From Branchiostoma floridae (taxonomy: Eukaryota; Chordata; Leptocardii; Amphioxiformes; Branchiostomatidae): a stretch of 64,000 nt of DNA. Below are positions 6,501 through 30,692 of the stretch, piece after piece. A program made the position numbers and the translations under genes. The notes under the pieces are model-generated. The model did no database searches. It saw only the letters and a program-made list of their open reading frames with translations, and had not been told where the DNA came from. Within the stretch, counting starts at the first letter, position 1. Every line of letters starts with the position of its first letter. The DNA lies in contig NC_049982.1 of assembly GCF_000003815.2 (NCBI RefSeq), positions 8,870,717-8,934,716 on the forward strand. Reading direction: 5' to 3'.

Positions 6501-9500
6501 AACGGTTACTCCTGCAATTGTGCTCCTGGCTATGAAGGCGATCACTGTGAAACAGGTAAGTTCTCTGAGAACAGTTCAATCCTACGATTTAACAAATTCG
6601 TTCTTGAAGGAACAATTATGATAATGCTGCGTGATATAAAAGGATGCCAATAAAGGTCAGGGTGTCAACGGTAAATAGACGTAGTCTTGTGTAATTACCA
6701 AAAAACGTTATCGAATCTTTTAAAGATATGTATGACATGATATTCTAATGTATCATTGGGTATGTTGAGAAAGCCAATATTACGTTTCAGATACGGACGA
6801 CTGCGTTGGAGTGGATTGTCAAAATGGCGGAACCTGCGTCGACAATGTTAACAGTTACTCCTGCAATTGTGCTCCTGGCTATGAAGGCGATCACTGTGAA
6901 ACAGGTAAGTTCTCTGAGAACAGTTGAATCCTACAAATTAACAAATGTGTTTTTGAAGGAACAATTATGATAATGTTGCGTGATATAAAAGGATGTCAAT
7001 TAAGGTCAGGGTGTCAACAGTAAATAGACGTAGTCTTTTGTTGTTAACAAAAAAAAAAGTCATCGAATCTTTTAAAAATATCTTTGAAATGATATTCTAA
7101 TGTATCATTGCGTATGCTGAAAAAGCCAATATTATGTTTCAGATACGGACGACTGCGTTGGAGTGGATTGTCAAAATGGTGGAACCTGCGTCGACGATGT
7201 TAACGGTTACTCCTGCAATTGTGCTCCTGGCTATGAAGGCGATCACTGTGAAACAGGTAAGTTCTCTAAGAACAGTTGAATCCTACAATCTAAGTCGTTC
7301 TTGAAGGAACAATTATGATAATGTTGCGTGATATAAAAATATGCCAATAAAGGTCAGGGTGTCAACAGTAAATAGACGTAGTCTTTTGTTATTAACAAAA
7401 AAAAACGTTATCGAATCTTTTAAAGATATCTTTGAAATGATATTTATATTTCAGCCATACATTGTATGGTGAAATATATTGTATTCGTAATGTTTCTTTC
7501 TTCTTTCTTTCTTTCTTTCTCCTGTCAAATCTTCAAAGTGATTCATCTCCGCCATTCCTGGACCGAATGACCTGAAATTTGGCACAAGGGTAGAGTGGGC
7601 CAATACCCAAATGTGTTTTTTTTTCTTTTTTTTTTCTCATATCTGCTCCTTAAAAGATTTTATTAAGGTTTTATTGCAACTTTTGGACCAAAACTGTATA
7701 ATTTGGCCCCCTGTACCATTGTATTACGTCCAGATGACCTGAAATTTCGGACAGATGTGCCTTTGATACTTATTCAAAGGATCCAGGTATAATATTTGGC
7801 ATAAATCACTTCAAAATGGCCCCTTAAGGAGGTTTTTGTGGGAGAGTTTTGGATATGTGAGGTTGAAGTGCCGAGGTCAACGACCTCTAGGTCATTCTGG
7901 TGTGTTAGGGCCACAGGTGTGCCAGGTAGATCCAATTATCTACCTACCTTCCTAGTCAATAGACATCCAGGTGGTTGGGGGACAAGGTAAATCCAATAAA
8001 TGACCAGCCAATGAGCGAGCTGATTTTGCTGGAAGAGTCCATTGTTGGACAGTGGGTGTTTTTTAAAATTTACTTTTAGACTTTGGTGATAATGCCAATG
8101 CTCTTTTTAGCGGAAGTGTTTTTGCACTGAACCAATTGACCAAGAGGTCCTGTGTTCGAAACCTGCCACGTCACCGATCTTGTGCTCTTATGAAAGGTAC
8201 TTGACACAACTTTCCACACTACACTCAGGTAAAATAAGATTAGGGAGCTTCGACTGGAATACCCAGCTTCAGCTGGATACAAATAGAAAGAACACCCAGT
8301 TTCGGCTAGGGCCGTCCCTCGGATAGGAGGTCTGGAGGTTCCGTGTCTGGGAGAGCCACACCTCACGCACGTTAAAGGTCCCACCACACCTTTAAAAAAA
8401 GAATAAGGGCATGCCCCGGTGAGCCATGGGGCAAATCTAGAGTTGGTGATCCACAAATCAGACGGACTCCAGGAAGAATAGTGACTAAGTCAGTCACTAA
8501 TGGAGATCCGTACCAAACCAACCAAATCAAACCAAACCAAACCAAACCAATGGGTCCACCTCCATTATGTCTTGCTCCCAGCAATCACTTTTATTTGGGT
8601 AGTTTCTTTGCCGATTGTAGTCTTAATTTTTTCCTATCAAAAAGTGCTTGTTCAACTCCAGAATTTGTTACATGTTACAAGTTATTGCCTTAAAACGCTA
8701 TCATGCCAAAAGGCCTACAGATTCTAGGCATGGCACACGGAGACATAATTTGTTTCTAGATGCTTGCCTTCAAAAGAGAAAAATAATCAGCCTATTAGAA
8801 AATTAAATTGTTGGATAAGAAATGGTTCTCTTCTTGGTTGCTACTTTTTTTCAGACCATTCATCCAGTTGCTAACCTCGTTCGATATGGTAATTCCTACT
8901 GATTGGTATTAAATTAAAGTTAATAATTTAAGCAATATCTAAGAACTTGCAGTGGTCCACACAAAAATATAGCTACTACTGATCCTATTCATAAGTTTCT
9001 ATGTTTCGACGTTTTCTAAAAAGAATTGAATTTTCAAACCATATTCTTTGAACACATCGACTCCCTTGGTACCTGAATATTTTGCAAACGACTAAAGCTC
9101 CTAAATAATTGAAATCATAATACATTTCAGAGCACTGATTCTCAAAATGGTGAATATCACTAAAAGCGTTCCTTTACGGAAGTTCTTGTTTGTCGTTGCA
9201 GACGTTGACGAATGTGCCTCTAATCCGTGTGCAAATGGCGGAATTTGTGAGGACGAGATCAACCACTTTACATGTACTTGTGCTCCTGGCTATGGAGGAG
9301 ATTATTGTGAAAGGGGTATAGGTACGTTTTCTCATAATAACTTTCTAACCGCACATTGAGATTCTAGACGGATGTATTCAGGTTTTGAAAACAATTGTAG
9401 CCTTAAACTTTGCGAAATACGGACTGAGTAATGTGCTGACGGAATTTGAACAGTTACGCGATTTTCATACTTTATGCGCTGTTTTTGCAGTTGATTATAA

Positions 9501-10650
9501 CTCCAACGTTAAATATTTGTTAAACTGCATTAAGCTTTGAATTTACAATTGTCTCAGGACAATGTTGGAAAGTCACACTTGTAATGTCTTTTGGTAGGCT
9601 TGATTCCCTTCGGAGGAAGGATAGGACCGATCACTGGCGGCCTTGGAGCCAGGCGCAGAAGAAACGCTCCCAATACTCACTGGAGTCGTGTAGGGAATGT
9701 GGCAAACTTAGTCTATGATGCGGACAGTGGTGAAGAGGAGCGGCTGGTGGCTTTTGCCGCTTCAAACTTGGAAGGACTTGCTGAGGAAGATAGTATTCAA
9801 AGTGAGTATCTTCATTCTGTACAACTGTTTTGGACAAATGAATGGTTTGAAAAAAGTAGCAACCAAGAAGAGAACCATTTCTGATTCAACAATTTAATTT
9901 TCTCATAGTCAAGCACATCATGAAAACCATAAAAAGAATTGTATCAGATCATGAGTAAGTTGTAACTATGAAAGAAAAAACGAACGAATGTTTTAATGAT
10001 AATAATGTTTCACTGATGTAGAAAAAGAATCTACCACTGTTTTCTGACACCGTAGGTCCTCTCCAAATTCTTTTGCACGAAATTAAGAAGAAATTAATGT
10101 AGAGACAGATCTTATCTGTATGTATATAACAATTTGGGTGACTAGCTAAAATATTCCTGAAATATATATATAATCTCCATAGATCCTCGCTCTTGATGGT
10201 AACTACCCTGCAACCACAGCCGAGGCGATGTCGTCCATGTTGCAGGATTTCCGTAACATGCAAGCTTCCATTGTAGCAATAATGGCCCTAACTGTAACCG
10301 GACGCTTGACGTCTTGAATTATGAACTCATCCGTAGGTCCTCTTCGAGACCTCACAGAAGATGTGGAGGGGTTTCCTAACAACTACCCTGTTACCACAAC
10401 CGAGGCGATGCCGTCCCTGGTGCAGGATTTCCACAACATGCTCAACGGCTTCAACTGTAGCAACAACGGTCCTAACTGTAACCGGACGCGTGGACAGGAC
10501 GATGTGGTAAAATTAGACAACCATTGGTACATTGTTTACAGGCCAGCAATTGAGTACGACCCAGGAAGTATGAAGAGAGGCATACGCTTCAGGATTCACA
10601 TTGTGGCCTGGCGCGGCTTTAGAATCTTTATTCGATGCTTCATATTTTAA
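351..10650 (+). CDS. Gene A: CCP-EGF(x16)-orphan tail protein, 5' partial
   Basis: Spliced gene assembled from exons 351-551, fifteen EGF exons between 2229 and 7256, 9202-9321, 9598-9801 and 10337-10650; the stop is TAA at 10648-10650. Every internal exon starts after AG, ends before GT and is phase 1-1, so all join in frame: 848 complete codons are visible. The upstream start and any signal peptide lie outside the window, and more exons could sit in the N gap 904-1467. The product should be secreted: a sushi module, 16 EGF modules, then the M and C parts of a tail shared with genes B, C and D. The N exon of that tail is missing; a decayed remnant lies at 9381-9465. Joining the CCP exon to the EGF array across the gap is inference; the rest follows from splice phase. 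The function is unknown; adhesion or matrix is likely from the modules. Confidence 0.75.
560..880. repeat. Dispersed repeat fragment
   Basis: Contains phrases such as AAAATCATAACAATCCGTCG and GCCGCTAGGGGG, with a poly-G run at about 697. The same phrases recur at 54900-55290 and, as reverse complement, at 29700-30290. The element continues beyond the N gap: 1470-1590 ends with a CA microsatellite and CGTTCTTGGCGAAGGTAA, like 55250-55300. Non-coding and intronic in gene A. Confidence 0.55.
904..1467. other. Assembly gap (564 N)
   Basis: Run of N inside an intron of gene A. It could hide extra CCP or EGF exons, so the domain count of gene A is a minimum. Confidence 0.99.
1591..2128. other. Intron sequence, nothing recognised
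   Basis: No exon-like reading frame with splice sites was seen between the repeat end and the first EGF unit. The EGF-unit intron sequence begins at about 2130 (ATTACCAAAAAACGTTATCG). Confidence 0.5.
2130..7442 (+). repeat. Tandem array of 15 EGF exon-intron units (~350 bp)
   Basis: Fifteen head-to-tail units of 346-358 bp; both the 114-bp exon and the intron are conserved. Exon starts: 2229, 2575, 2926, 3275, 3633, 3979, 4337, 4685, 5035, 5386, 5732, 6089, 6442, 6791, 7143; each exon is exactly 114 bp. The intron keeps recognisable blocks such as AGGTCAGGGTGTCAACA and AAAGCCAATATTACGTTTCAG in every unit. The array stops abruptly near 7442, where unrelated sequence begins. Because introns are as conserved as exons, the array arose by recent unequal exchange rather than only by selection on protein. 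Confidence 0.95.
2229..7256 (+). CDS. Gene A: 15 calcium-binding-type EGF exons
   Basis: Each exon encodes 38 residues with six cysteines: D(T/M/A)DDC, then [20 protein letters not shown], then [12 protein letters not shown]. The D.D.C start and the C.D....Y.C.C motif are the calcium-binding EGF and Asp/Asn hydroxylation signatures. CQNGGTC fits the O-fucose consensus C-x4-S/T-C in 14 of 15 copies; the exon at 5035 has Ile instead of Thr. All 15 keep six cysteines and open frames. Variants: the first copy has DTVDC and a weaker TTTAAG acceptor; copies at 3275 and 4685 have VYC and VSC in place of VDC; the copy at 3039 uses GTAGGT as donor. Exons are phase 1-1, so adding or losing units keeps the frame. 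Intact splicing of all copies is inferred. Confidence 0.9.
7443..8075. repeat. Non-coding sequence with TTTC microsatellite
   Basis: Follows the last EGF unit. It has a (TTTC)n run at about 7495-7520 and phrases such as GACCTGAAATTTGGCACAAG, repeated in altered form near 7737. No exon signature was found. It is probably an old dispersed repeat in the intron. Confidence 0.4.
8080..8550. repeat. SINE-like repeat with AACC tail
   Basis: Contains GTTCGAAACCTGCCACGTCAC and AAAGGTACTTGACACAACTT, close to the SINE-like segment at 53740-53880, and a (AACCA)n/(AACC)n tract at 8515-8550. The phrases TTCGGCTAGGGCCGTCCCTC (8303) and CTTCGGTTAGGGACGTCCCT (53647) correspond. This suggests a tRNA-derived SINE family; no internal gene. 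Confidence 0.5.
9202..9321 (+). CDS. Gene A exon: EGF module 16
   Basis: Phase 1 exon after TTGCAG. The peptide starts [10 protein letters not shown] and continues [29 protein letters not shown]: six cysteines and the calcium-binding DxDEC start. It resembles the EGF exons of gene B (19076, 19553) more than the 15-copy array. Two donors give the same phase: after 9315 (GTATAG) or after 9321 (GTACGT); the second matches consensus better. Confidence 0.88.
   Translation, partial: TLTNVPLIRVQMAEFVRTRSTTLHVLVLLAMEEIIVKGV
9381..9465 (+). pseudogene. Decayed N-module exon of the orphan cassette
   Basis: Between the EGF exon and the M exon, where genes B, C and D keep an intact N exon, bases 9419-9465 read [14 protein letters not shown]. 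This matches [14 protein letters not shown] of gene B at about three quarters of bases. The donor is gone (GATTTTCATAC instead of a GT after GAC GTG G), and the conserved CLVRP start cannot be found. Confidence 0.65.
9598..9801 (+). CDS. Gene A exon: orphan cassette module M
   Basis: A 204-bp phase 1-1 exon: [15 protein letters not shown], a basic cluster [27 protein letters not shown], and an acidic end [11 protein letters not shown]. The RRRR cluster is a good furin-type processing site in a secreted protein. Homologous exons lie at 20123, 25039 and 29133. I do not recognise the family. Confidence 0.85.
10183..10305 (+). pseudogene. Truncated duplicate of the C-module exon
   Basis: After an AG at 10181-10182 the sequence reads like the start of the real exon at 10337, with matches including GGTAACTACCCTGCAACCAC, GCCGAGGCGATG and AACTGTAACCGGACGC. 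It has internal deletions, one of which shifts frame at AACATGCAAGC, and it lacks the last half. It lies immediately before the intact copy. Confidence 0.75.
10337..10650 (+). CDS. Gene A last exon: orphan cassette module C
   Basis: Starts after CCGTAG in phase 1: [18 protein letters not shown], then [28 protein letters not shown] (two cysteines, NCS and NRT sequons), then [18 protein letters not shown] and a last hydrophobic, arginine-rich stretch [15 protein letters not shown] before TAA. The tail after KR has five Arg and no acidic residue. It has homologs in genes B (frameshifted), C and D. Confidence 0.85.
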
Positions 10651-12364: not shown

Positions 12365-12470
12365 TTAGTTACTGTAAGTTCCCCACTCACGCATATGTAT
12401 GAGTGTCCGTAGCCCTTAAACTTTACAAGTGTTGTCCTGCGCGCTTGTCCACAAAGTAGTTCTTATTTAA

Positions 12471-14794: not shown

Positions 14795-17700
14795 GTAAGT
14801 TAAAAACAATCACTCTAGTCTAGAACACGTCTCGTAAATCTATTTCAGCCCTGGGATTCTTCCATCGGTATAACGTTTAAACTACAAATGAATTAGGTCT
14901 GTCTGGAACATATATATCGATAGTGATGACATAGGATTTATGCTTTAAGTTGTCCAGTTTAGGGAAGCCTGTCGGAGACACTATGTGACAAGGTCACAGT
15001 GTAAACATACCACACGGCAATTTAAAGTGTTTCTAGACTTCTTGGATTTCCCGTATCCCGATTTTTCAGTTTGTTGGCTGGAGAAACCCAGACAGCCTTG
15101 TGATCGACCAAGAATGGAAAAAGGACAAATCATGAACCAAGAAGTTATGTCTTAATGCATGTGAACAAAATGTCTAATCTGACGTTGGTGATAGTTTATC
15201 TTCTGTTGATGTCAAGGAAGGTAATGTGAGACGATTTAAGTGGGAACTGTTCAATGTCAAGGTCGGAAACGTTTCCATCATACTGAATACGTCATGCAGT
15301 TTTCTCATGGGAATAAATGTCACCATTCTCTCATTCTGTACCTCTTTAGACTTCAGTGGTTGTCATGAGTTGGCGAGGATACAGATTTCCTGATAAATAG
15401 TGTTTGCGGATAATAATTATAATACATAAAACATATCGTCGGCCCCTGAGGCTAAATGTAGACTGGTATGATGAGTTGGTCAATTAAGGCGAATACCACT
15501 CAACAATAGGGGCAGACAGGTTGACATGTTGGACGAGTTTGCTTTGCTGTGCAGGGCGTCATTATTGATCGATTGGTGACGCAAATATAAACAAAGTGCT
15601 AGGAAGTTTGTTACTGAAGTTACAGAGCGTTTCCGCGATTCAGTTTTTTTTGCAGTTACATGTTCGATTGCCATCATGTCTATCATGATGGATTTTAGAC
15701 AGGAAAAACCGCGGTTAGTTCGATACTGTTTTATCCACTGGATCCAGTGCCCGGCCACCGGTAGATTTACATGGAGATTAGGGGATAGCCACAAAACTTT
15801 TAGTGCTTTTAACTGGGAGTTCCTAGATTTATCAGCAATTAGAAAATGCGAGTCGTCATTTTTATGTGCAGCAGGTACACCATGCTATGCCAACAATACA
15901 GCAGACATTCTTGAACTAGTTGAACTGTAAATTCCAACCCAGAAAATGGACCCACCCAAATTTTCGACTGAACAGCACCAGTCTAGGAATGAACAATCCA
16001 CTGCTGCCGTGACGTCACGTTATGCTGATAGAACATGTGACTCATTGAGCAATGGGTCAAAGGTTGCAGGAAGTCTATGGCGCCCACCGTCTCTGGGTTT
16101 TTGTGTTGGAATTTACAGTTCAACTAGTTCAACATCGACTTCTAACAACACAGATGAACGTTCAAGTTAATGAATGAATGAATGAATGAATGAATGACCT
16201 TTATTGTACACTCACGCCTCGACGGGCTAGGTGCAGGTCATTGATAGCAGACATATGCAGAAAATAATACATCAGCCATAATGTGGTGTCTACTTTTTAT
16301 CTAAATTACTATATTTCCATTATCTTTAGGGTCATCATCGGTATCATGGTTTGTCTCGTCCTTGTGCTGTATGTGCATTCTGTCGGCGGAAGGAGAGTAA
16401 GAAGTACGTATTGGACATTGTTATGTTTGAATATAAGAATATGACACCTACCCGTGCAAACTAGCTAGGGTATCATTTAATGGTGGAGGTCTCCTCCATT
16501 CCTTGTTTAACATACCACCAAAAGTCTTTTGTAATCTGAAATCGCTACTGAAGACTTACGCATGTGTCTACCTTGCAGAAAGGTGTAAGCCGTTGGAGTT
16601 TCCAGACACGACAAGGGATTGCGACCAGGAACCGAATGCAGAAGGCTGGTACCCCGATGGAACCGTCTGCATGTTTGACTGCAGGGAGGGATGTGTGAGG
16701 GACAAAGGAAAGAGCAGAAGAGTTTGCAAGGTCAGGGGCAGGTCAAAATGGTGGACTGGAGGACGCGGACTGCGGTGTACTTGTGAGTGGCCAAATTTCA
16801 GAATCTCCAGAATTGTACGACAAAATTCATATTCCAGCGGTGTATCATAGCTATTATCTCCTTGATTTGTACATGTAATATTTTATTGTGTACCATTTAA
16901 ATGTCACCAGATACATCCCCTTATACCTAGATGATGAATCCAATACTGTAAATAATTTTGAGGAACAAAGGTAAAGTGTACTGTTGTAACAAACGTTACC
17001 TGCCATATAATACATGAACAATGGGTAAAAAAATAAGGTACCGTTTTTTGGCTTTGTTCAAAAGAGAAATGTCCCTAAACAACCAGGTAGGTTTGACTGA
17101 AAAATGATCAGATTTATTTGCCGTACCAAAAATCGCTATTCTGCACATTTCAACGAAAACGAGCCAGATGTGAGTTTTTCATCTACTTTCCGTATGTCCA
17201 GGCAACCCATGCGACCGTGCACCCATCCACCCCCAAGGTTACCCCAGTGATTGTGACCCAGACCAGCCCCCCTACCCAGCGGGACACGTCTGTAACTTCA
17301 CCTGCCCGGCAGGACACGGCAGGACGTCAGGTGATGGGAGGAAACTCTGCAACAACGGCCAGTGGATGGGAGACGATGTTGTGTGTGAAGGTATCTTGGC
17401 CAGGAGGGTTATTACGTTTTCGTAGTACTTGTATAGCAGGGTAACGGTTTAACGGTGTAATATAGCAATATAACTCTAGAAGCTATAAATGGATTGATAT
17501 GAAATTAGGTCTGCCGAAAGGTATTGGCCTATTGAAGAGATTATTGTCCTACGCTTTCGGTGCCGTTTGTTTGTCTGTCTGTGACCAGCGTAACTCCAGG
17601 AGTTGTGACAATATCCATAAGTTTGATGATGGGTCCCCTAGCAGCTTGTAGGAACTGCACTAGAAATTTGCATGATTAATGAGAAAATCCTATAATTCCA

Positions 17701-20700
17701 TAGTGTCAAATGATGGGGATTTCATTCATATGACATTTGGAAGTAATGATGACTAGAAAGGCCGACATTTGCTTAAGAGCAAATGCAGCATATTTCAGCC
17801 ATACCCCTTCCCACGCAACATTGGACTGTTCCAAATCACCCCTGCGCAAAAATGGAACATCCTCTTAACAGTACATTATCCCCCAAAGTGGACTGGTATT
17901 GTGACTTGATTCCAGGTAAAGATAGAGCTTGCTTCTATTTTTCAGAAAATGACAATAATCACACCTTCCATTTAGAAAATTTTCATCATGACTGAAAATT
18001 GTTGAATGACTTCATGTAATGTCATTAACAATTTTCAGTACGATAACTAGGTGTAAGTTTAAAAAAAGTATAAGCTCCTTGTGATGTGGGTACATTTATT
18101 ATTGCAGTGAACTTTTTTTATTCAAGTAGGGCATACGATTTAATAATTATCAAGCAGGTGCAGGTACTGTAGGAGCGTTTGCTTTCTTCAAGCTGTAAAA
18201 CTGTTAAACTGTTTTACTTTGTATGCAATCAGCCATCGAGCCTATTCTTATTTTAGTTTAACAACTCAGTCCTGCCAGACCCGGAAGATACGATTGAACC
18301 TTGTTCGAGGATTTATTTTCGTCTGTCTGGTCAGTCTGTTCATACCCTGGCGCTGAGAGTGTTTTATTGGGCTGAAACTTTGGCAGTTTAAAGTTACTTA
18401 CAATTTAAATGTTCAAAGTTTATGTCAAACAACAACAGCACTAGGAACACATACATTTGCTCTGGAGAAAATACAGCAGTTTTCGCAAGTTCCAGTCCAG
18501 TGATAGAAATGTGACCACTATAGACAGGTGGTCACTATAGAGAAAAATGCTGATCTATTGACTAGGAGCCATACGTTACACATGATTTCAGTACACTGAT
18601 CATTAATCATATAAACATTGCACAGGTAAGCCAATTGTTTAGATGTACAATTAAGTTCAAATAATTCTGAAGAGAAATATTGATGAGAAAATAATCATTC
18701 TCGCCACTGTCTAACTTATAATTACGTATCAAAACTAAACGCAGATTTTCTAACTAACGCACCTTTCGCCGACTTCATCAAAGGACCGCCGGCTATCAAT
18801 CAAACACGGCTGTTGATTAGACATAGAGTTTCAAACAGTCATGTGCTGTGTGCCAGTTGACAGCGAACGTCATGCTACGTGATGTTTTACATTGCTTGGA
18901 CCTTCTTTCCTACAGCGGTGCTTCTACAAAATATTTAGACTGTAACACTGACTCCCACGTGAGTCACGTCACCACATCATTTGGTGACGTGAAGTTATGA
19001 GGTAGCGGAACTCTATTCAGAATTTGGATTTTTGTTGGATAACGCATTTTTGACAGACCTTGTATGTTGTTGCAGAGTTTGACGAATGTACCTCTGTTCC
19101 GTGTCAAAATGGCGGAATTTGCGAGGACGAGGTCAACGCCTACAACTGTAACTGTGCTCCTGGCTATGTAGGCGATAGTTGTGAAACAGGCAAGTTTTCC
19201 CGTTACAGGTGTCTTATTGTAACAACATTAAAACAAGTTTCCAACCATGTTACTTTCGAAGTACAAAATTGTGGAAGTACCCACAACAAGAGCAGAACAC
19301 CTTCACTTGCAACAAGTTAGACTTAGATGTACGTTTTCTATTCATTTTTGACGACGTTATTACACAGTGGTTACCAAGAAAACGCAACAAGGTTCAAGAA
19401 ACCCCTTTGCAAGTAACGACATCCTGGGTATCGGAAGGTTTCTGAACGACGAATCTCCTTAAATGAGATAATCAAGCGTTTCAAAGCGTTTGATTTTCAA
19501 AATGGTGAATAAGACAAGAGGTTTTGACAAAACGTTTTGAATGTTGTTGCAGAAATTGACGAATGTGCCTCTGATCCTTGTCAAAATGGCGGTACTTGCG
19601 TGGACGAAATCAATAGCTACATTTGTACTTGTGCTGAAGGCTATGAAGGAGATAACTGCGAAACGGGTTAGTTCAAATATATATATTATATAGAGAGAGT
19701 TAGATATATATAGCTAACAAATCGTTGATTATAGATTTTATAAGGCAATCCTTAGCTTTGGATCTAACTTAAGGTTATACTAACTAACCGGATAATCTTA
19801 CCACAGCGCCCTGTCTGGTGAGGCCTCTCTACGGTCCGTCGGCAGACGCGAACTACTCCCAAGACTTCTGCGTTAACTACGACGTCCTACTCCCTGAAAT
19901 AACGAACCTGACAAGGTCCTTCAACAGATCCCTTCAGGAACTCGGGCTCAGTAATGTGCGGAAGGACCTTGAAGAGATACGTGACGTGGGTACGTAGATA
20001 TTTCTGAGGGTATTTCATGTGGTAGTTTTCGTCCATTTGTACCGTTTTCACAGTTTATCACCGTTTAAACCTTTAATACCTTCCAAAGTTTAAATGTCAC
20101 ACCTTTTAATGGTTTTTGGTAGGTTTGATTCCCTTCGACGGAGAAATAGGACCTATCACTGGGGATGACCCACCGACGACCGAACCCATGCCAACTGTGA
20201 TGCCGACAGAGGTGCCGACTGGCAGAGTCAGACGCAGAAGACAAGCCAGCAATGGTAATCCCTGGAGCCGGGTAGGGAATGTGACAAGCTTAGTCTATGA
20301 CGCAGACGGTGGTCCCGAGGAGAAATTGATGTCCTTTGGCGCTTCAGATTTAGAAAATCTTGGCGAGGACGACTATCTTCAAGGTAAGTACCTTAAGATC
20401 TATAGATTTCTTTTTGCTTTGGAAAACTAGCGAGCGAGGGGCGAGCATCAAATTAAGTTGTTTGGACTTTCAATGATAACCTAATCTAACCAACATAAGA
20501 ACCTAGTAGACTAAAGGTGCTGAAAAATCCGTAGGCCTTCCTTTTTAAAGCCGTTTACCTAATGTGGGAGGAAGAAGACGTGCCGTAACTGATCGTGTGT
20601 ATCAAATATAAGCAACAAGCTTAACGTCTCGAAATATGAACTCATTCCATAGGTCCTCTCAGAGACCTAACAGAAGATGTGAAGGGGTTTTCTGAGAGGT

Positions 20701-20870
20701 ACAATGAAACCACAGCCGAGGCGACGCCGTCCATAGTGCAGGATTACCGTAACATGCTCGACAGCTTCAACTGTAGCATCAACGGCCCGAACTGTAACCG
20801 GACACGTGGACAGGACGATGTGGTACCGCCTAGACAACCACTGGTACATTGTTTACAGACCAGCAATTGA
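14790..20870 (+). CDS. Gene B: signal-CCP-CCP-EGF-EGF-orphan cassette
   Basis: Exons 14790-14794 (ATGCG), 16330-16403, 16579-16782, 17202-17390, 19076-19189, 19553-19666, 19807-19989, 20123-20383 and 20653-20870; the sum is 1362 nt, 453 residues plus stop. Met-Arg and the hydrophobic second exon ([15 protein letters not shown]) form a signal peptide split by an intron. Two sushi modules, two EGF modules and the N-M-C cassette follow. The M exon is longer than in other copies because of a Thr/Pro-rich insert. In the last exon one extra base, relative to gene A, shifts the frame at about 20824, so the conserved cationic tail is lost and translation stops at 20868-20870. The product should be secreted, with unknown role. 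The first exon rests on phase and its match to genes E and F. Confidence 0.75.
16168..16265 (-). repeat. Possible LINE/SINE 3' end with ATTC tail
   Basis: (GAAT)n at 16170-16198 followed by GACCTTTATTGTACACTCAC; on the minus strand this is AATAAAGGTC followed by (ATTC)n, as in CR1/L2-type 3' tails. A related stretch is at 58410-58490. Assignment is tentative. Confidence 0.35.
16330..16403 (+). CDS. Gene B exon: signal peptide core
   Basis: Starts after TTTAG in phase 2, ends phase 1 before [26 protein letters not shown] is a typical hydrophobic core; GGRRVR follows. Nearly the same sequence is in gene F (59979-60052), and the following intron is also similar (GTGCAAACTAGC..GGGTATCA in both). 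Confidence 0.85.
16579..16782 (+). CDS. Gene B exon: CCP1, sushi-like module
   Basis: A 204-bp phase 1-1 exon: [44 protein letters not shown], then [12 protein letters not shown]. The cysteine spacing is sushi-like, with a distinctive GCVR..G..R.CK.R segment shared by genes E and F. It is almost identical to gene F CCP1 at 60272. Confidence 0.85.
17202..17390 (+). CDS. Gene B exon: CCP2, sushi module
   Basis: Phase 1-1 exon after TGTCCAG; the split codon T+GC makes the first Cys. Peptide landmarks: [47 protein letters not shown]. Six cysteines with the terminal GxWxGxDxVC of this CCP type. Confidence 0.85.
17391..19075. other. Long intron of gene B with repeats
   Basis: Holds dispersed repeat pieces (17520-17720, related to 29700-30290; 18290-18410, related to 53360-53470: ACCCTGGCGCTGAGAG and GGCAGTTTAA). 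A possible CCP fragment lies at 17808-17916. No other exon was recognised. Confidence 0.45.
19076..19189 (+). CDS. Gene B exon: EGF1 (GC donor)
   Basis: A 114-bp phase 1-1 exon: [39 protein letters not shown]. All six cysteines are present. The donor is GCAAGT, not GTAAGT; the rest of the exon aligns exactly with its paralogs, so this is a GC-AG intron rather than a wrong boundary. Confidence 0.88.
19553..19666 (+). CDS. Gene B exon: EGF2
   Basis: Phase 1-1, 114 bp, donor [45 protein letters not shown]. Calcium-binding start, C.D....Y.C.C hydroxylation motif and an O-fucose consensus (CQNGGTC). Confidence 0.88.
19807..19989 (+). CDS. Gene B exon: orphan cassette module N
   Basis: A 183-bp phase 1-1 exon: [28 protein letters not shown], then a likely helix [19 protein letters not shown]. 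Exactly the same length and core as exons 24570 (gene C) and 28605 (gene D). Two conserved cysteines. No known family recognised. Confidence 0.85.
20123..20383 (+). CDS. Gene B exon: orphan cassette module M, long form
   Basis: Begins [14 protein letters not shown] like gene A, then has an insert rich in Pro, Thr and Met ([17 protein letters not shown]), VRRRRQ furin-type cluster, [19 protein letters not shown] and [10 protein letters not shown]. At 261 bp it is the longest of the four copies. Confidence 0.85.
20653..20870 (+). CDS. Gene B last exon: module C, frameshifted
   Basis: Opens [13 protein letters not shown], keeps [19 protein letters not shown] and [15 protein letters not shown], then reads GTGGTACCGCCTAGACAAC where gene A has GTGGTAAAATTAGACAAC: one extra base. 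The frame then runs to TGA at 20868-20870. DNA beyond it to about 20967 still resembles the lost cationic tail, so the change looks recent or is a sequencing error. Confidence 0.75.
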
Positions 20871-20967
20871 GTACGACCCTGGAAGCATGAAAAGGGCAAT
20901 ACGTTGCAGAATTATAATCGTGGCCTGGCGAGGCTTTAGAATCTTCATTCTATGCTTCATACGTTGA

Positions 20968-22990
20968 GAAAAACCATTTGCCAATTCATCTAATATATAA
21001 ATGCTGATGTCCCTTGTCTTCAGCTGCAGGTATGTAGATGGATATGTCCGTTCGTATAGATTTATTTTACTTGGCGTAAAAAACGGTGCTTCCTGTAAAT
21101 GCTTGTAGAACTGTAATAGTGCCGCGTATCTGATGTTACATTTAACAACGTTAGCATTATCGCCAAGTTTACGCGTTAAGATATTTGTGGATTAAGGGAC
21201 AGTCCAGTATGTATTGAGTATGGGCGTATGTAGGCACATTGGCATTGATAACCCATATGCTGCAATATCAATTCATGTTTATTGTCACTAACGCATTCTA
21301 TGATGATATGACTTTGCTTTTATTCAATTTATTGATCGCTTTATTGATAGGAATCGCTTACGGTTGATAATGTAAATCATCCATGGATACATGTCAACCA
21401 ATTTGAATTTTCTAAGTGAGGTATAACCAACCATAAATGTTCTGCAATAGGTGTCCCGGCCGTTGAGATAAGCTATGTTAATGAAATAAATCAAATGTGT
21501 ACCTCAAAGTGCAATGTCTCAGCAATTTTTGCAGTTCGGCGAAAATGGCGTGTATGATGCGCTGGTCGAAGGTCACCAAAGTAACTTGTACTCGTGCCAG
21601 CCAGCGTGTCGCTCGACAGGTTTGTCTGGCCTCAAAAGCAGGCGACGCCCGAAAAGGTCAGAGTTCGACATGTCACATCAGGACGCACAACAAAACTAGT
21701 CAGGACACACGACACAACTCATCCAAATCACACCTTCATCTCTTAGAAGATCCAGGATACAGAATGGGGCAAGTGGGCTTATTTTTATAACTTTGACTAC
21801 GAGAATTGTTACCCGTCCCCGATTTCTAGTCTGGTAGTCCAAATTGCGCCGGTGTCCTTGGAATGATTTCCTTGTGTTTACGAGCTCAAAGCACTAATAC
21901 TTAAAGAAAGATTTGGTGCAAGGCCCTCTTTTTTGTTATTTGTATTAGGCTGAAATTTCACACATGAACATTGTATACATGTAGACCCAAGTCCAAACAG
22001 ATTGTCTTTTATAACTGCCTGTCCTTTCTCTTAGCCTATAGTGATCGAAGGTAATTAGCTATGGTGCAGGAAGTATGAACACGTGAGTCATGTAACTGTC
22101 GCATGACATTGAATCCTCCATAAAGTTATTTACATATACATCGCTACATTTCACATCACGTAACGTATTTATCAACTTTCATAATTCATTTGCCTGCCCA
22201 AAGAGACTACGTGAAATCATCATGGTTGATTTAACGAGATCTAACAGCATACGTAATCCCTAAGGTGCATGAACGCACACTTCAGATATCCAGGTGTTTT
22301 GTAAACATTCTTGAGCCAGTCTTGATAACATTGTTTTGATGCAGTCTCGGGGTGTCCGGTTGAGCTATGAGAGACAACGTTTACCATTTTACGTGATCTA
22401 CTCAGACAGAAAATACGTCAAGCCTACTGAACTAACGAGGTGAAAAATATGAGAGACTGAGTCAGAAATCTAACGACCATTTCTGAGTCAATGGTCGATT
22501 TTGACGACGCCTCAGGGGAGTCGTCAAGTGGTATATATTGCATTCAGTCTGCAAAAATTATAGGAATTGCACAGGCATTTTTCCAAGAATGCTAGTACTC
22601 CACAGTATGCTGGGTATGCAAGTCCCCCCTCCCCCTAAATCTGTTCCAGATGTATCTCTGGTATGCAATGGTGGAATGAAGGTCACACGGGGATAGTACA
22701 TTTCTGGCTGTAGGTTTATGTTACAGGTGGGCTAGTATATTGTGCCAGGGATAGTGCGACAGGGAAGTTCCAGTCTATTTCTGATTTGAGCTGTATTGTT
22801 GTACCCTCAATCGTCGTCATGGCATAAAGACATTTTTATTGCCAGTCTTGTAGGTATTGGTCCCGATTGCACCGGTTCCCGCAGGGGATGTAGCCGTATC
22901 CACACATTTGCCCTGGTGGACTGCCCCGAGAGTGAAAAAACAGCCCGTAAACTGCCCGGCAGGCCCCCTTTTTCAATTGGGACCGTAGCC
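20968..22990. other. Intergenic between genes B and C
   Basis: 21181-21700 is the copy of the gene A 3' flank. ATGAACAC followed by GTGAGT (22075-22082) would fit in phase as a first exon of gene C, but nothing else supports it. Otherwise no exon or domain signature was seen. Confidence 0.45.
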
Positions 22991-23822: not shown

Positions 23823-23893
23823 GTTGCGAGGTTGTCTGCTGTTGATGACCTTTCTTTCCATGAACGATGGGCAGCTTATATTGACTATTGATG
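23823..23893 (+). CDS. Gene C exon: signal peptide
   Basis: A 71-bp exon, phase 2 in and 1 out, after CTTGACAG. LRGCLLLMTFLSM is the hydrophobic core. Same length and phases as gene D 28280-28350 (FRLCLLFMALLPM). Confidence 0.65.
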
Positions 23894-26019
23894 GTAACTT
23901 ATGGCATATTACACTTAATGATTCATACAGAATCGAATTATGCACGTCAGTGTTTCAAGCACCCTTGTCATTCTTTAGCCTCCATAGCAGGCTCTCTGGG
24001 TTTTTTTGCTCATAATACACTTTTGCTGGCCATTTCTATTTTCTGACTGCCAACCCCCAGAAAAGACCAGCAATCAGCGACTAGTACAAATAGAAATGGC
24101 CAGCGAAAGTGTATTATGAGCAAAAAAAAACCCCAGAGAGCCTGCTATGGAGGCTAGTTATTCTTATTAATCGTTAGAAATATGCTAACGTTATCTTCAT
24201 TTTGCAAAAATAGTATTTATTCTCTTTGGAGAAAATGCTCAACACAAAAAGCCTCGGTACCTGTAACCGGGTATGGCAACGCCTTTTTAGATCTATTCTA
24301 TATTTATAAAATATTGAAATAGTTTTTTTACCTTCTCTGTATTCTGCTAATCTCCGATCCAGGCAGTTCCTACAGTAGCATAAAATAGTATCAAAAGCTG
24401 CCAGAGGAGTGAAGCCGGCCTTATTGTGTTTGGCTAACATGGCAAATGTACACCTCTTGGCTGCCTACACTCATTGGCCAGAAGTTTAGTACTATCTTAT
24501 GCCATTGTAGGATCTGATTGGAGATTGTATTCTGCGACATGTACATTTTCCTTGTGCCCCGTGTTCCAGACTCTTGTTTAGTGAGGCCCAAGTACGGCCC
24601 GCCCGGACATGGGCACGCCAGGCGGTCCCCGTGTGTGAACTGTGACGTCTTACGCCCGGAGCTCATCAACCTGAACGATTCCCTCCCACAGTCCGTGGTG
24701 GAACTCGGATTAAGTAACGTGGTAACGGACCTGGAAGAGCTATGTGATTATGGTAGGTAACGTTATACATATGGTGGAGGCATCATGACGTCTCAAACTG
24801 CCCATCGTTTGGCAATAGACAAGTACAACTTGTTATGATAGATTGAAATGCAGTATTTTAAAACATGCATATTGAATATATCGCAAAACCTCGTCCGAAA
24901 AGTACGGACTACATGTTTTAGTTTGTACAGGTCGAAAGGCACAGGCAAGTAGGATAGACAATAAGTGTTGTTGCTTTCTTATGTAATTAACATGAAACTT
25001 TCTTCTACATTTCTACCCCTGAAAACGCTATCTGTTAGATTTGATTCAGTTCAAGGGACGTATCGGACCAATCGGCGCTGGGGGTGGGCGCAGGCGCCGT
25101 AGAGCAGCCACACATTGGAGCCGTGTGGGACGCGGGACTAGTCTGGTCTATAACGTCACCCACGATGTGACAGGCGGGGATGGAGAGCAGTTCTTTGCTT
25201 TTGATTTCCCAGCGTTGGATAGCCTCGACGCTCTTGAAGGTTAGCGGTCATCTCAGATCATTTCAGATCGACAGAAAATTACAATAGTTAGAATAGAATG
25301 TTAGAATTATTAGTAGTACATTTTCATAGGGCTCAGCGTAATGTCGGGGCGTGACCATTCAAGAGCAGGATGCTGTCATCTTACATGTAGTTCAGACGCT
25401 GCGTGCGCCTCCTCCGTCTACGTCATATTCCTATATATAGGAAGTATGCAGAGTGCAGACTATGGACTAGAACTTAGGCTGACTAAAATCGCGCTCCTGG
25501 CGGCCGGCCTTACAGTTGCCACCACTCTCGGGGAGGGGGTCATTAACCCCAGCCGGATTGTGTAAACACAGGCTGGACTAGAACTAAAACCTTAACAGTT
25601 TGTTTATCTCGATCTATCAGTTCATTCGTGTCAATTGAACATTCCTAAACAATAAGCTTAAAGTATTTCAAACTCATTCCGTAGGTCCTCTTCAAAGCCT
25701 TTCACCAGTTGTGTTGGAGTTTAGCGGTAGACCTGAATACGCCGCTACAAACGCGGAGGCGATGCCGTCCCTGGTGGAGGATTTCCAGAGCATGCTCGCC
25801 AGTTTTGACTGTCCTAACGGACCTAACTGTGGCCTGACACGTGGAGAGGAGAGTGTGGTACAGCTTGACGAGTACTGGTCTATTGTTCAAAGGTTGTCCC
25901 TTGAGTACGACCCCGCACCAGGAGGGACGAGGAGGAGGAGAGCTATAAGATTTAGGTTTGTCATCGGCATTCCGGCCTGGCATGGCTTTAGAATCTTTAT
26001 CATCATCAGAATATACTAA
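23823..26019 (+). CDS. Gene C: short secreted orphan N-M-C protein
   Basis: Exons 23823-23893 (signal), 24570-24752 (N), 25039-25239 (M), 25685-26019 (C, TAA stop). With an ATG-plus-2-nt first exon, as in genes B, E and F, the protein would be 264 residues. That first exon was not found; 22075-22082 is a weak candidate. The signal exon (LRGCLLLMTFLSMNDGQ) matches gene D exon for exon. There are no CCP or EGF modules, so this is the bare cassette. Module M has GRRRRRAATHWSR and module C has GGTRRRRAIRF just before the hydrophobic cationic tail: two furin-type sites. Likely a processed secreted precursor, by inference only. An inverted-repeat element sits in its first intron (23976-24156). Confidence 0.72.
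23976..24156. mobile_element. Snap-back MITE in gene C intron 1
   Basis: Arms of about 70 bp are inverted copies: TAGCCTCCATAGCAGGCTCT at the left and its reverse complement at the right, continuing through GCTCATAATACACTTT and GGCCATTTCTATTT. Only a short loop separates them. No coding capacity. Confidence 0.8.
24570..24752 (+). CDS. Gene C exon: module N
   Basis: A 183-bp phase 1-1 exon: DSCLVRPKYGPPGHGHA, PCVNCDVLRPELINL, SVVELGLSNVVTDLEEL. One extra Cys (VNCD for VNYD, and LCDY near the end) compared with gene D. Confidence 0.85.
25039..25239 (+). CDS. Gene C exon: module M
   Basis: A 201-bp phase 1-1 exon: DLIQFKGRIGPIGAGGG, RRRRRAATHWSRVG, LVYNVTHDVTGGDGEQFFAF. The five-Arg cluster is a furin-type site. 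Donor GTTAGC is weaker than in other copies. Confidence 0.82.
25685..26019 (+). CDS. Gene C last exon: module C
   Basis: GPLQSLSPVVLEFSG, EAMPSLVEDFQSMLASFDC, GPNCGLTRG, YWSIVQRLSLEYDP, then GGTRRRRAIRFRFVIG, AWHGFRIFIIIRIY and stop. After RRRR the tail has four Arg, one His and no acidic residue. Confidence 0.85.
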
Positions 26020-26510: not shown

Positions 26511-27120
26511 CTACTAGTACTCAAGTTACGTAAGTTTATCTGATACAACATTATGGCTCTCGTAGTAAATATGATTAAGTGTAACCAATCGTCACTACTA
26601 AGCAAACGGTCCACAATCCCTATATATTAAGCGCCATCTGGCGAACAGAAATGAAACGTCAATATGTTGCGTATGACAACGATGTGGTCATCACTCGATA
26701 CTTTAATTAACATGTGATTTTCATTTCTAAGGGGAAAATAAGGTATTCAAGACCCGGATCAGAGAACATTTTTTGAATGAATTCACGTTAACAATCTCAC
26801 CAGTATAGATATGAGAATATGAGCATCAGTGAGTTCTCCTTTAAGCTCTCCAAAGTCGTTTATAAAGACAGGTGCAGAAGCAACATTACGTTATTCTGAA
26901 ACCCACGATAAGCTACACCTGATTGAATGTGAAGGTATACAAAATTACTCACATTATACTTTATGGCTAAATGTATTTAAGTAGACTGTTCAAGGTTATA
27001 CAGCATTTCTATCTTGTTGTTTGTGGTTGACAGAACGAAAGTCGCTTTACTTTTTGTTGTACGAATAAAGCTTCTATTGTAAGAGTTTTATACTGGGTCT
27101 GCGGCGATCAGAAATTCTGA

Positions 27121-27220
27121 NNNNNNNNNNNNNNNNNNNNNNNNNNNNNNNNNNNNNNNNNNNNNNNNNNNNNNNNNNNNNNNNNNNNNNNNNNNNNNNN
27201 NNNNNNNNNNNNNNNNNNNN
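27121..27220. other. Assembly gap (100 N)
   Basis: Between genes C and D. It could contain the missing first exon of gene D. Confidence 0.99.
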
Positions 27221-27409
27221 ATACTATGTTTAATATGCTACCCTAGGATGTGCTTGGAGATTAAGGAGAGCCACACATTAAGCACGTGCGCACATGCAAG
27301 TTCAATAATCCACCACAGCTACAGAGCAGAGTAGGGTTCATTCCTGGTGTGAGCGGATCAAAAACCATTCAGATCCAGATGGAGTATCCCGAGGAGCCTT
27401 CGTAACCCC

Positions 27410-27537
27410 TATTCTCCAAGCAGAGGTTGAGTCGCGGAGATAAAGTAGTAGTCTGGATTTTTACTGGAGCGCGAGAGTAAATTTCCCGACTACTACTAGT
27501 ATTATATCTCCGCGACACAACCTCTGCTTGGAGAATA
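27410..27537. mobile_element. Snap-back MITE upstream of gene D
   Basis: Left TATTCTCCAAGCAGAGGTTG and right CAACCTCTGCTTGGAGAATA are exact reverse complements; CGCGGAGATA and TATCTCCGCG extend the pairing. Confidence 0.8.
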
Positions 27538-28279
27538 CGCAGCCCCTGCTTCTACTGGGCCAGCTCTTAGTCAGCATGTGAGCTGATATAAACCACGCTG
27601 TTTCTGACTTGGGGAGAAGAAATGCTCCTTCTCGTGTAACCTGCAATAACCTTCAAGTGGCCTTCGGATCTTGTGACCTGCTACATGGCGACCATGGACT
27701 GAGTAAAATCAAGTACGGATAAGCCAAGACTAAAGCAAGATAAGTAATACTAGTACTATAGTAGCTAAGCAACAATTTAGCCATCTACTTTATGATAAAG
27801 CTGATCTCAGGCAAGGCTACTACCAGACTACTACGGACTTCCGAGAAATGACAGTGTGTGCACCTGACGCCTCGGGCGTCCTCCATCGTGACACATAACC
27901 ACAAGTGTAAGTCCTTGTAACGTTTACAAGTGCTTCAGTTGAAGTGTGTAATATTGGCTATAATACATGTCTATATGATCTCACGGAAGATCTTTGTGGC
28001 AATTTTCCCACAACGTTGAAAGACTCTTGTAAGCCTTTGCTCACTGTCGGTCAGAATGGTTTAAACAGTAGTCACTTTGTTATAAGGTACGTTAGCTTTT
28101 AGTCGTGAGAAGAATAGTTGATGACCTACATCATTAGAATTTTCCTCGAACTATTGATCATAAGTGCGATGTATTGCACTTGTTCGGTGATCTTAATGTA
28201 TGAACTTTGTCGTCGTCTTGGGCAACAAACACAACCTTAACAAGTTGGAAATGTTTGAATCCCTCTCTGTCGCTTTCAG

Positions 28280-28350
28280 GTTCCGGCTTTGTCTGCTGTT
28301 TATGGCACTGCTTCCAATGAGCGATGCGCTGCTAAAACTGGTCGTTGATG
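28280..28350 (+). CDS. Gene D exon: signal peptide
   Basis: A 71-bp exon after GCTTTCAG with a good pyrimidine tract, phase 2 in and 1 out, donor GTAAGA. FRLCLLFMALLPMSDALLKL has a clear hydrophobic core and a plausible cleavage after SDA. Confidence 0.7.
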
Positions 28351-30692
28351 GTAAGAACAAAACCGTGCTCCTCTGTGCATGCCACGAACGTTTCAAATTT
28401 AACACCTTTGATCGTCCCTTGTTGTATGCTTTCCCCATAAGATGAACTTGATAGCTCTTTTCTTGAACACTTTGGCTGAAATCTCCAATGCCTAAGTACT
28501 GAGAAACTGACAGAATTTCATCTTCACCTTTATTTTCATTGATTGTATGTACTGCCCTTGACTGTGCGCCTACTGCAGTGTTCCTCCCGCCGCTATTGCT
28601 ACAGATGCCTGCCTGGTGAGGCCGAAGTACGGTCCGCCAGGACACGGGCGCGCCACGCGACCTCCCTGTGTCAACTATGACGTCTTACTACCAGAAGTGA
28701 CAAGCCTCGCCACTAAACTCCCACAGTCCCTTGCGGAACTCGGCCTCAGTGAGGTAGCAAAAGATCTGGAAGAACTTCGCAACGCCGGTAGGAGGAAACA
28801 TTGCTGATCAAATTATTCATTCATATGTGCTCAACATGTAAAACTCTCTTTTTTTTTACCTTAGTACAACTGAAGCTCCCTGGTAAGACAGGGAAACAAA
28901 TGATTCAGTTAAATGTTAAAACTTTTCATGAAAAACGCTTTTGAATATTGTGTCACAAAACAGTACAATTTAGACCACTCAAACTAGTCAGGCTCTTGAA
29001 GTCCTTGAAGTTTCATCAGCACATGTACATGCTGAAAGATATATACAATTAATGTAGCCTGTAATGTTTTATTTGCCTTTATAATCTTGATGTTAGCAAA
29101 TTCACTGTACATTTTGTAACGGTTGTTACTAGATCTAATTCAGTTCAAGGGGCCGATCGGACCAATCGATGGCGTTGGCGGCAGACGCAGGCGCCGTAGA
29201 GCAGCCACACATTGGAGTCGGGTAGGACGTGTGACCAACCTGGTCTACAACGCGACCCACAATGTGACCAACGGGGATGGGGAGCAGTTCTTTGCTTTCG
29301 CTTCTCCTCAGTTCGATAGTCTGTTAGAAAACGACACTCTTGAGGGTAAGTAGCTACCTTCTTGTAGGAACTGTTGACCAAAAGGAATTTAAAAGAAAGC
29401 ATGCAAACTATTATTTCTAGATAAAGGTGAACGATATAGAATGTGAAAGTATTGTTCAGGCTACAATTAGAAATTGGAAATAGTACTAAGGTATATTCCT
29501 TTTTATAACAATTGGAAAATGTCTACATTTCCTAAAATCTTTATTTCTCAAACAAGAACATATGTGACGTTTTCACGGTGCATCTATTGTCGTACACAAA
29601 GATTGACACCATTCAGATGATGTTCTGATTGACATTTCCTAGTATTAATACATTGAAACAGTAACAGCCATCTTATGATGGTAGTTACCTCCATGAAATG
29701 TCATGGAGGTTATATTTTACCCTGCGTTTGTGTGTCTGTCTGTCTGTCTGTCAACAAGATAACAGAACGGCTGGGTGGATTGGTTTCATACTTGGTGTGT
29801 TGGTAGGGTGTGACGAAAGCTGGAAGTGATTAGATTTTGGGCCCCCTAGCGGCTTCCCTGCAGTGCAACTCCGGTTTTGCTATCTCGTGTTCTGAACAAG
29901 CTACGGTCACGATTTATGGGTGTTAGATAGCTCTTGTGCTCAGGAAGAAGTGACATAAGTTTATGCCCCCTAGCGACTAGGTTTGGGATAGCAGGGGCAT
30001 TTTTGTCAAAAACTTCTTAAGTGGATAACTCAAGAAGGGAACAACGATTCATGATAGGCGGAACATAAGCGGATGCCAAATATGCAAATGAGGAACTGAT
30101 TTGCATAATATATGTACATATTGCAAAATCACCTAATGACTAATGATGGGAATTTTATACTTGTGATATGTGTAAGTTAGTCAATGATGAACATCACCAT
30201 GCATAAATCATGTAAATGTATCATTTGCATAGAATTTACAAAAGCTCTAAATTTTCATGGAGGTATGAGGTCGCTGAGCTCTAGTTTCTTTATGTCTCTC
30301 CTGAAACTCATATAAGCAAGTTATATGCATGTACTGAACTAGTAAATGGCATTGTTTTCCGACAATTCTGTTCCGTAGGTCCTGTTCAAAGCATGCTGGA
30401 AGATGTGGAGGGGTTTCCTAACAACTACCCAGCTACCACAGCCGAGGCGATGCCGTCCCTGGTGCAGGATTTCCGCAACATGCTCGACAGCTTCAACTGT
30501 AGCAACAACGGTCCGAACTGCAATCTGCCCCGTGGTACTGACAGCATAGTACAGTTAGATGAGAACTGGTCTATTGTCCAAAGGTACGCCCTCGAGTACG
30601 CGCCCGGAGGTATGAGGAGAGCCATACGTTTTAATATTCTCATTGTGGCCTGGCGCGGCTTTAGAGTCGTTATTCAACTCTTCATCTACTGA
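28280..30692 (+). CDS. Gene D: short secreted orphan N-M-C protein
   Basis: Exons 28280-28350 (signal), 28605-28787 (N), 29133-29345 (M), 30379-30692 (C, TGA stop). With a 5-nt first exon the product is 261 residues. No such exon was found; it may lie in the gap at 27121-27220. Alternatively the signal exon could start at an in-frame ATG at 28251 without splicing. MRFRLCLLFMALLPMSDA would be a good signal peptide with the micro-exon. Same order and phases as gene C. Module M has GRRRRRRAATHWSR; module C has GGMRRAIRF before the cationic tail. It has no CCP or EGF. The function is unknown. Confidence 0.72.
28605..28787 (+). CDS. Gene D exon: module N
   Basis: [51 protein letters not shown]; 183 bp, phase 1-1, donor GTAGGA. 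Confidence 0.85.
29133..29345 (+). CDS. Gene D exon: module M
   Basis: DLIQFKGPIGPIDGVGG, RRRRRRAATHWSRVGRV, LVYNATHNVTNGDGEQFFAF, LLENDTLEG; 213 bp, phase 1-1, donor GTAAGT. Two NxT sequons (NAT, NVT). Confidence 0.85.
29690..30290 (-). repeat. Dispersed repeat in gene D intron 3
   Basis: Begins CATGGAGGTTATATTTTACC with a (TGTC)n run near 29735-29755, contains GCCCCCTAGCGGCTTCCCTG, and ends near TTTTCATGGAGGTATGAGG. It is the reverse complement of phrases at 54960-55290 (GCCGCTAGGGGGC). Confidence 0.6.
30379..30692 (+). CDS. Gene D last exon: module C
   Basis: [82 protein letters not shown] and VVIQLFIY before TGA. It is closest to gene A in this exon. Confidence 0.88.

What the first reader, a model, noticed from the sequence alone, without database searches (positions are those of the whole stretch)
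9381..30692. An unrecognised three-exon secreted cassette (N-M-C), alone or fused to CCP/EGF modules
The sequence shows four copies with conserved exon phases: N (CLVRP..YGP...[10 protein letters not shown]...ELGLS.V..DLEE), M (LI.F.G.IGPI...RRRR...HWSRVG....LVY), C ([18 protein letters not shown]...AIRF...AW.GFR.FI). Genes C and D are essentially signal peptide plus cassette; genes A and B carry it at the C end of CCP/EGF proteins. I know no family with these motifs. I infer a lineage-specific family spread by tandem duplication and exon joining.
Basis: partly seen in the sequence, partly recalled or inferred. Interest (0 to 1): 0.8.

Follow-up and report, generated by a model that had tools for sequence, protein, structure and literature searches.

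The report
Unnamed three-exon secreted protein cassette
A lancelet-like animal genome carries an unnamed protein cassette, built from three matching exons, that has been copied about a dozen times, sits alone or at the end of different secreted proteins, and matches no protein family or structure we could search.

Summary
The window has M exons in four genes (A-D), intact N exons in three (B, C, D) and C exons in four; gene A keeps only the last third of a local N exon, and gene B's C exon has a 1-nt frameshift. N and M exons and the carrier exons tested are phase 1-1 and multiples of three (9, 25). dN/dS is below 1 in every computable pair (19, 109).

The window's own 513-Mb genome holds 13 C-exon places (part-copies not counted), 12 M and 11 N exons, in two subfamilies plus one distant member. 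N-M-C order is kept wherever more than one was found, except upstream of gene A. Carriers differ: alone, CCP/EGF, four CCPs, TIL, EGF. One N exon is fused in frame to an EGF inside one exon (79, 114).

Pfam, NCBIfam and PDB sequence searches found no relative. AlphaFold failed (pLDDT 33, 43). Five of 12 M exons carry RRRR. My reading: a C-terminal extracellular module, furin-processed in one branch, spread by phase-1 exon duplication, shuffling and gene conversion. Function, fold and lineage restriction are untested.

The parts
351..551 (+). Gene A: CCP-like exon (phase 1-1), first module inside the window
   Evidence: cysteine pattern; no Pfam Sushi match; similar modules continue upstream of the window
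2229..7256 (+). Gene A: 15 EGF exons in a 349-bp exon-plus-intron tandem array
   Evidence: Pfam EGF on two of these 15
9202..9315 (+). Gene A: last EGF exon
9414..9465 (+). Gene A: decayed 3' third of an N exon (pseudo-exon); the similarity runs on through the intron to 9598
   Evidence: score 64 against shuffle maximum 32.5 with gene B's N exon and intron; against gene D's N exon alone the score, 22, was below the shuffle maximum of 26
9598..9801 (+). Gene A: M exon (with RRRR)
10201..10308 (+). Gene A: broken part-copy of the C exon in the M-C intron
   Evidence: score 147 against shuffle maximum 33
10337..10650 (+). Gene A: C exon, ends in an in-frame stop
16330..16403 (+). Gene B: signal-peptide exon (first ATG at 16346; enters in phase 2)
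   Evidence: similar to 59979-60052 of a downstream gene, which lacks this ATG
16579..16782 (+). Gene B: CCP-like exon 1 (no Pfam match)
17202..17390 (+). Gene B: CCP-like exon 2 (no Pfam match)
   Evidence: its homologue 11 kb upstream of the window scores Sushi E=0.002, just under Pfam's cut-off
19076..19189 (+). Gene B: EGF exon 1 (GC donor)
19553..19666 (+). Gene B: EGF exon 2
19807..19989 (+). Gene B: N exon
20123..20383 (+). Gene B: M exon (RRRR, with an extra P/T-rich stretch before it)
20653..20970 (+). Gene B: C exon with a 1-nt insertion near 20825-20832 that shifts the frame
23823..23893 (+). Gene C: exon resembling D's signal-peptide exon; start codon not located
   Evidence: no ATG-led candidate was found upstream of gene C
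24570..24752 (+). Gene C: N exon
25039..25239 (+). Gene C: M exon (five R)
25685..26019 (+). Gene C: C exon, ends in an in-frame stop
28251..28350 (+). Gene D: signal-peptide exon (ATG at 28251 if unspliced; an acceptor precedes 28280, so the true first exon may lie upstream)
28605..28787 (+). Gene D: N exon
29133..29345 (+). Gene D: M exon (six R)
30379..30692 (+). Gene D: C exon, ends in an in-frame stop; part of its 5' half is unusually close to gene A's (gene conversion)

Best explanation
The cassette is one extracellular protein module encoded by three exons (N and M in phase 1-1, C entering in phase 1 and ending in the stop). It is used as the C-terminal part of secreted proteins, either right after a signal peptide or behind CCP, EGF or TIL modules. 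SHOWN: the exons, phases and frames; selection on the protein; 13 C-exon places in this genome; no match in Pfam, NCBIfam or PDB sequences; duplication, an N-EGF join inside one exon, and a gene-conversion tract. INFERRED: splicing, secretion, and that the upstream modules belong to the same transcripts. In the branch that holds the window genes a furin-type protease would cut at RRRR in a loop of M, leaving an N-terminal piece (N plus the start of M) and a C-terminal piece (rest of M plus C). The hydrophobic C part would act as the assembly or ligand-binding end of matrix, mucus or humoral proteins, with the carrier modules giving spacing or targeting.
For: Exon borders, phases and open joined frames. 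Substitutions 255:216:386 on codon positions 1:2:3 over 12 window exon pairs; dN/dS 0.14-0.58 in 12 of 12 window pairs and 0.22-0.62 in the 28 of 36 genome C-exon pairs that could be computed, 8 being saturated. Genome copies in N-M-C order, with the most distant member finding seven others. Two subfamilies separate with 100% ultrafast-bootstrap support in nine sequences. Carriers: CCP-CCP-EGF-EGF, four CCP of which two were scanned by Pfam, TIL E=1.6e-9, EGF fragment, alone (D; and C362 with a similar signal-peptide exon, likeness judged by eye). N-EGF fused exon. Gene conversion A-D: 16-site identical run, permutation p=6e-4. RRRR in 5 of 12 M exons just before the W block. No family match.
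Against: No RNA, protein or localisation data. RRRR is missing in 7 of 12 M exons, so cleavage cannot be essential to the family. Both AlphaFold models are poor (pLDDT 32.9 and 42.6), so it is unproven that N, M and C form one domain. N also occurs before an EGF, without M beside it, upstream of gene A, and for the C7 copy no N or M was found within about 17 kb upstream, part of it a 100-base gap, so the three exons are not always together. Three of 13 C exons are frame-broken. The first exons of genes B, C and D were not located.
Confidence: 0.62

Rival explanations
1. N-M-C is a highly diverged copy of a known extracellular fold (for example SEA or the Notch heterodimerisation domain, which also has a furin-cut loop, or a cystatin-like fold), so only the sequence family is unnamed.
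For: EGF carriers, RRRR in M, helix followed by strands in both low-confidence models. The likeness to Notch, SEA and cystatin is recalled, not computed.
Against: No Pfam model matched the window cassettes at E up to 10, though HMMER's filters drop most matches above 0.1; weak hits in other copies were to unrelated families, below cut-off. Foldseek gave nothing below E=0.48, but on a low-confidence model.
Confidence: 0.35
2. The cassette is a precursor that releases a short C-terminal cationic-hydrophobic peptide at the basic site before the tail.
For: The R before the tail is invariant in 10 of 10 aligned copies, and KR or RR precedes the tail in 11 of 13 C exons (read by eye). Gene C and both C13 copies there have R-x-K/R-R, the furin-type motif (recalled).
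Against: The tail looks like two beta strands of the C domain in both low-confidence models. Two of 13 C exons have GR instead, and 10 of 13 lack the furin-type motif (by eye).
Confidence: 0.12
3. Many copies are decaying or unexpressed relics; the standalone genes C and D are exon fragments of a once larger gene.
For: Frameshifts in 3 of 13 C exons, a lost N exon and a part-copy in gene A, a part-copy array in a C13 copy, unlocated first exons.
Against: dN/dS below 1 in every computable pair and open frames in 10 of 13 C exons.
Confidence: 0.15

Closest known systems
Class 1-1 extracellular shuffling modules (EGF, CCP/Sushi, TIL, TSP1)
   Same: Phase-1 exon borders, secreted multi-domain carriers, duplication and recombination
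   Different: Three-exon cassette that ends the protein, no Pfam match; other animals were not searchable, so its range is unknown
Notch heterodimerisation domain / SEA domains (recalled)
   Same: EGF carriers and a basic cleavage-type motif
   Different: No Pfam match; the motif is in 5 of 12 M exons only; LNR modules and membrane anchoring were not looked for specifically
Lancelet exon shuffling as described in PMC4284660 (passages seen)
   Same: Frequent exon rearrangement with a bias to 1-1 phased exons
   Different: Its domain-combination analysis uses Pfam-A domains, so a module without a Pfam model would not be counted there

Membership tests
Known Pfam / NCBIfam family | Match at or above the curated cut-off | tested here: not met
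   Pfam: window cassettes: 0 families; five further members, all weak hits below cut-off: GBS104-like Ig 0.02, EF3 HEAT 0.35. NCBIfam: (two sequences; RimP 0.062, below cut-off)
Family with a solved structure | Significant sequence or profile match to a PDB chain | tested here: not met
   none; eL29 at E=1.3; (N profile): AMPK at E=0.12, both judged chance
Class 1-1 shuffled extracellular module | Symmetric phase-1 exon borders | tested here: met
   N and M: (C enters in phase 1 and ends in the stop, so it cannot be symmetric)
Class 1-1 shuffled extracellular module | Found with different partner domains | tested here: met
   CCP/EGF, four CCP, TIL, EGF, alone; that these exons join the cassette in one transcript is inferred from order, spacing and phase
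SEA / Notch NOD-NODP | Pfam match or common fold | tested here: inconclusive
   no Pfam match; models too poor for a fold test
Furin substrate | R-x-K/R-R in the secreted chain | tested here: met
   in 5 of 12 M exons, four of them the window genes; motif recalled; cutting itself not testable
Lineage-restricted (lancelet) family | Absent from other animals | not testable with these tools
   only prokaryote, viral and own-genome sequence was searchable; the viral contigs and prokaryote genome-contig scans, which start from two short patterns each, confirmed no relative

The most novel reading that the evidence does not exclude
N-M-C is a new extracellular domain fold that arose within one lineage and became a mobile C-terminal assembly domain. 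It is furin-primed in one branch and has been joined repeatedly to CCP, EGF and TIL modules, with gene conversion between copies, giving a close-up record of how a new shuffling module starts.
Probability: 0.25. Interest if true: 0.75.

Novelty: new variant of a known kind. Interest (0 to 1): 0.5.

Why it matters
New extracellular modules are rarely caught young. Here one genome holds standalone copies, copies behind several kinds of carrier module, an N-EGF join inside a single exon, decayed part-copies and a gene-conversion tract, so the steps of module birth and shuffling can be read from sequence. No Pfam model matched it, so domain-combination surveys based on Pfam would not count it.

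Tried and rejected
Rejected: chance similarity (E-values; reciprocal genome searches). No viral or bacterial relative was found (51 and 78 pattern matches, none confirmed; both scans start from short patterns of a four-sequence alignment, so they reach close relatives only). Rejected as chance: RimP, eL29, AMPK, GBS104-like Ig and EF3, and Foldseek hits with E of 0.48 or worse on a low-confidence model. Considered: C part-copies as tandem repeat exons; in the C13b copy the unit tested is 86 nt, not a multiple of three, so it was left unresolved. Considered: a swap of the whole C exon between A and D; only part of the exon is shared, so gene conversion is the better reading. Six pairs were tested without correction; besides A-D (p=6e-4), B-D had p=0.018. 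Literature: four searches listed nothing on this cassette, judged from titles and abstract starts; of PMC4284660 passages were seen. Failed: AlphaFold on four window cassettes and on window C exons. Rfam found nothing in the window.

Rows dropped: alignment A2 leaves out the three frame-broken C exons (B, C4:8.12, C362); one search leaves out L039; one search leaves out L039 and the three broken ones. One search includes B's broken exon as DNA. Pfam was given only part of the window's other ORFs: 4 besides genes A and B, 10. For gene A only 3 of its 16 EGFs were scanned; of the four CCPs of the 8.46-Mb copy, two (104). Phase-2 entry of the signal-peptide exons, the dibasic count and the likeness of the C362 signal-peptide exon were judged by eye. 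The species is not given; 'lancelet-like' is recalled from genome size and module style.
Full report
Observation. The exons sit at N 19807-19989, 24570-24752, 28605-28787; M 9598-9801, 20123-20383, 25039-25239, 29133-29345; C 10337-10650, 20653-20970, 25685-26019, 30379-30692. N and M exons are multiples of three with AG before and GT after, in phase 1-1; C enters in phase 1 and ends in a stop. Gene B assembles as signal peptide, CCP, CCP, EGF, EGF, N, M, C, and gene A as CCP, 16 EGF, M, C inside the window. EGF is confirmed by Pfam; the CCP-like exons of A and B carry the cysteine pattern but gave no Sushi match. A homologue of B's second one, and one in a downstream gene, score just under the Sushi cut-off.

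Corrections. Gene A has only the 3' third of a local N exon (9414-9465; alignment score 64 against a shuffle maximum of 32.5, exon plus intron, with gene B; against gene D's exon alone the test fails, 22 against 26) and a broken part-copy of the C exon at 10201-10308 (147 against 33). Gene B's C exon carries one extra base, so its frame ends early.

Coding. Over 12 window exon pairs, substitutions fall 255:216:386 on codon positions 1:2:3, and Nei-Gojobori dN/dS is 0.14-0.58. Among nine intact genome C exons it is 0.22-0.62 for the 28 of 36 pairs where it could be computed; 8 pairs were saturated. The proteins look to be under purifying selection.

Genome-wide family. The window is G000:C4:8870717-8934716 of a 513,431,437-base assembly. 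Single-protein searches find 13 C-exon places, part-copies not counted: window A, B, C, D; C4 at 8.12, 8.46, 8.50 and 8.51 Mb; C7; C2; two on C13; C362. N exons number 11 and M exons 12 (the most distant one by local tblastn, E=7e-5). The tool calls its counts lower bounds. N, M and C occur in that order in 10 places; gene A and the 8.51-Mb copy have M and C; for C7 only C was found within about 17 kb upstream; one N exon stands upstream of gene A before an EGF. Subfamily I (window, C4:8.12, C2, C7, C362) has a Cys pair in C. Subfamily II (C13 twice, C4:8.46, C4:8.50) lacks it, has a short N, and has M starting VPxC. The two split with 100% ultrafast-bootstrap support in a nine-sequence tree. 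The distant 8.51-Mb copy finds seven other family places on its own.

Carriers. Apart from A and B, the 8.46-Mb copy has four CCP exons upstream of N (two scanned: Sushi E=4.6e-11 and 3.9e-5), the 8.50-Mb copy a TIL domain (E=1.6e-9), and the 8.12-Mb copy an EGF fragment just before N. In gene D and the C362 copy a signal-peptide-like exon comes before N; the C362 one resembles D's by eye. In a further 10 kb upstream of the C7, C2, two C13 and 8.50-Mb copies a tblastn with seven module queries found nothing at E 0.01. Eleven kb upstream of the window an N exon runs without an intron into an EGF. The joined exon is 86% identical to gene B's N over its first 181 bases and 79-89% identical to four EGF exons over the rest; with three of the four the two similarities overlap by 11-12 bases at the join. 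With a GC donor, as in gene B's first EGF, it is 97 codons and phase 1-1 (read by eye). EGF arrays continue from there towards gene A, so gene A may be a very large gene with N far from M-C; that is an inference, as no transcript was seen and the region holds assembly gaps.

Recombination. DNA similarity links A and B beyond the exons (the intron before M, and a 3' flank of about 0.5 kb), while C and D match mainly over exons. Quartet site patterns favour AB|CD in both M (30:3:3) and C (19:3:3). Yet over part of the 5' half of the C exon A and D are 92-95% identical where A and B are 76-85%, with a run of 16 identical variable sites (permutation p=6e-4, six pairs tested without correction; B-D had p=0.018). 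I read this as a gene-conversion tract. These traits fit the frequent, 1-1-biased exon shuffling described for lancelets (PMC4284660; passages seen), if the source is a lancelet, which is recalled and not tested.

Identity. No Pfam family at E up to 10 for the window cassettes; nothing at cut-off for five further members; nothing at cut-off in NCBIfam for two sequences. PDB sequence and profile searches gave nothing credible. No relatives were confirmed in viral contigs or prokaryote genomes. AlphaFold with the four window sequences gave pLDDT 32.9; the C exon alone gave 42.6 with a helix followed by four strands, and Foldseek found nothing below E 0.48. These models cannot prove or exclude a known fold.

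How it may work. Each of the 10 intact C exons ends in an in-frame stop, signal-peptide-like exons precede two standalone forms, and the carriers are extracellular modules: the cassette is most likely the C-terminal module of secreted proteins (inferred). RRRR stands before the conserved W block in 5 of 12 M exons, in gene B after an extra P/T-rich stretch, as expected for an exposed protease loop (motif recalled). Cleavage would divide the cassette into an N-terminal and a C-terminal piece. Since 7 of 12 M exons lack it, cleavage would be a property of one branch.

Verdict. The kind of evolution is known; the domain is not. What it does, its fold and its taxonomic range remain open.

Noticed in passing
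2229-7256: Fifteen EGF exons with their introns in a 349-bp tandem array, 90% matches: recent amplification of an exon plus its intron.
   Followed up: partly
59979-60052 and 60272-60478: The signal-peptide and CCP exons of a downstream gene lie in stretches 77% and 90% identical in DNA to gene B's. Further exons there match TSP1 and, weakly, carboxypeptidase-regulatory-like and Ig domains, so the start of one gene appears to have been copied onto a different partner; the direction is unknown.
   Followed up: partly
37165-51120: Probably another multi-domain gene: CCP-like exons, EGF, many calcium-binding EGF exons in duplicated blocks (2.2 kb at 87%, 0.66 kb at 96.5%) and two TSP1 exons (only some exons scanned).
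   Followed up: partly
20825-20832 and the matching site in L036 and L035: Three of 12 aligned C exons have frame-changing indels (+1, -1, -10) within about ten bases of each other; the chance of three random points within 12 of 315 nt is 0.005, with the span chosen afterwards. It may be a tolerated truncation before the tail, a hotspot or assembly error.
   Followed up: partly
L034 7461-8667: A 142-bp tandem array (8.5 copies, 96% matches) of the first third of a C exon with its acceptor, running up to the full C exon; a part-copy also occurs in L033 and in gene A.
   Followed up: partly
L038 550-942: A stretch that by eye looks like part of a non-LTR reverse transcriptase, upstream of the CCP exons (recalled resemblance).
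   Followed up: no
L036 1494-1592 (reverse-complement orientation): A short collagen-like stretch (below Pfam's cut-off) about 6 kb upstream of a cassette copy; possibly another gene.
   Followed up: no
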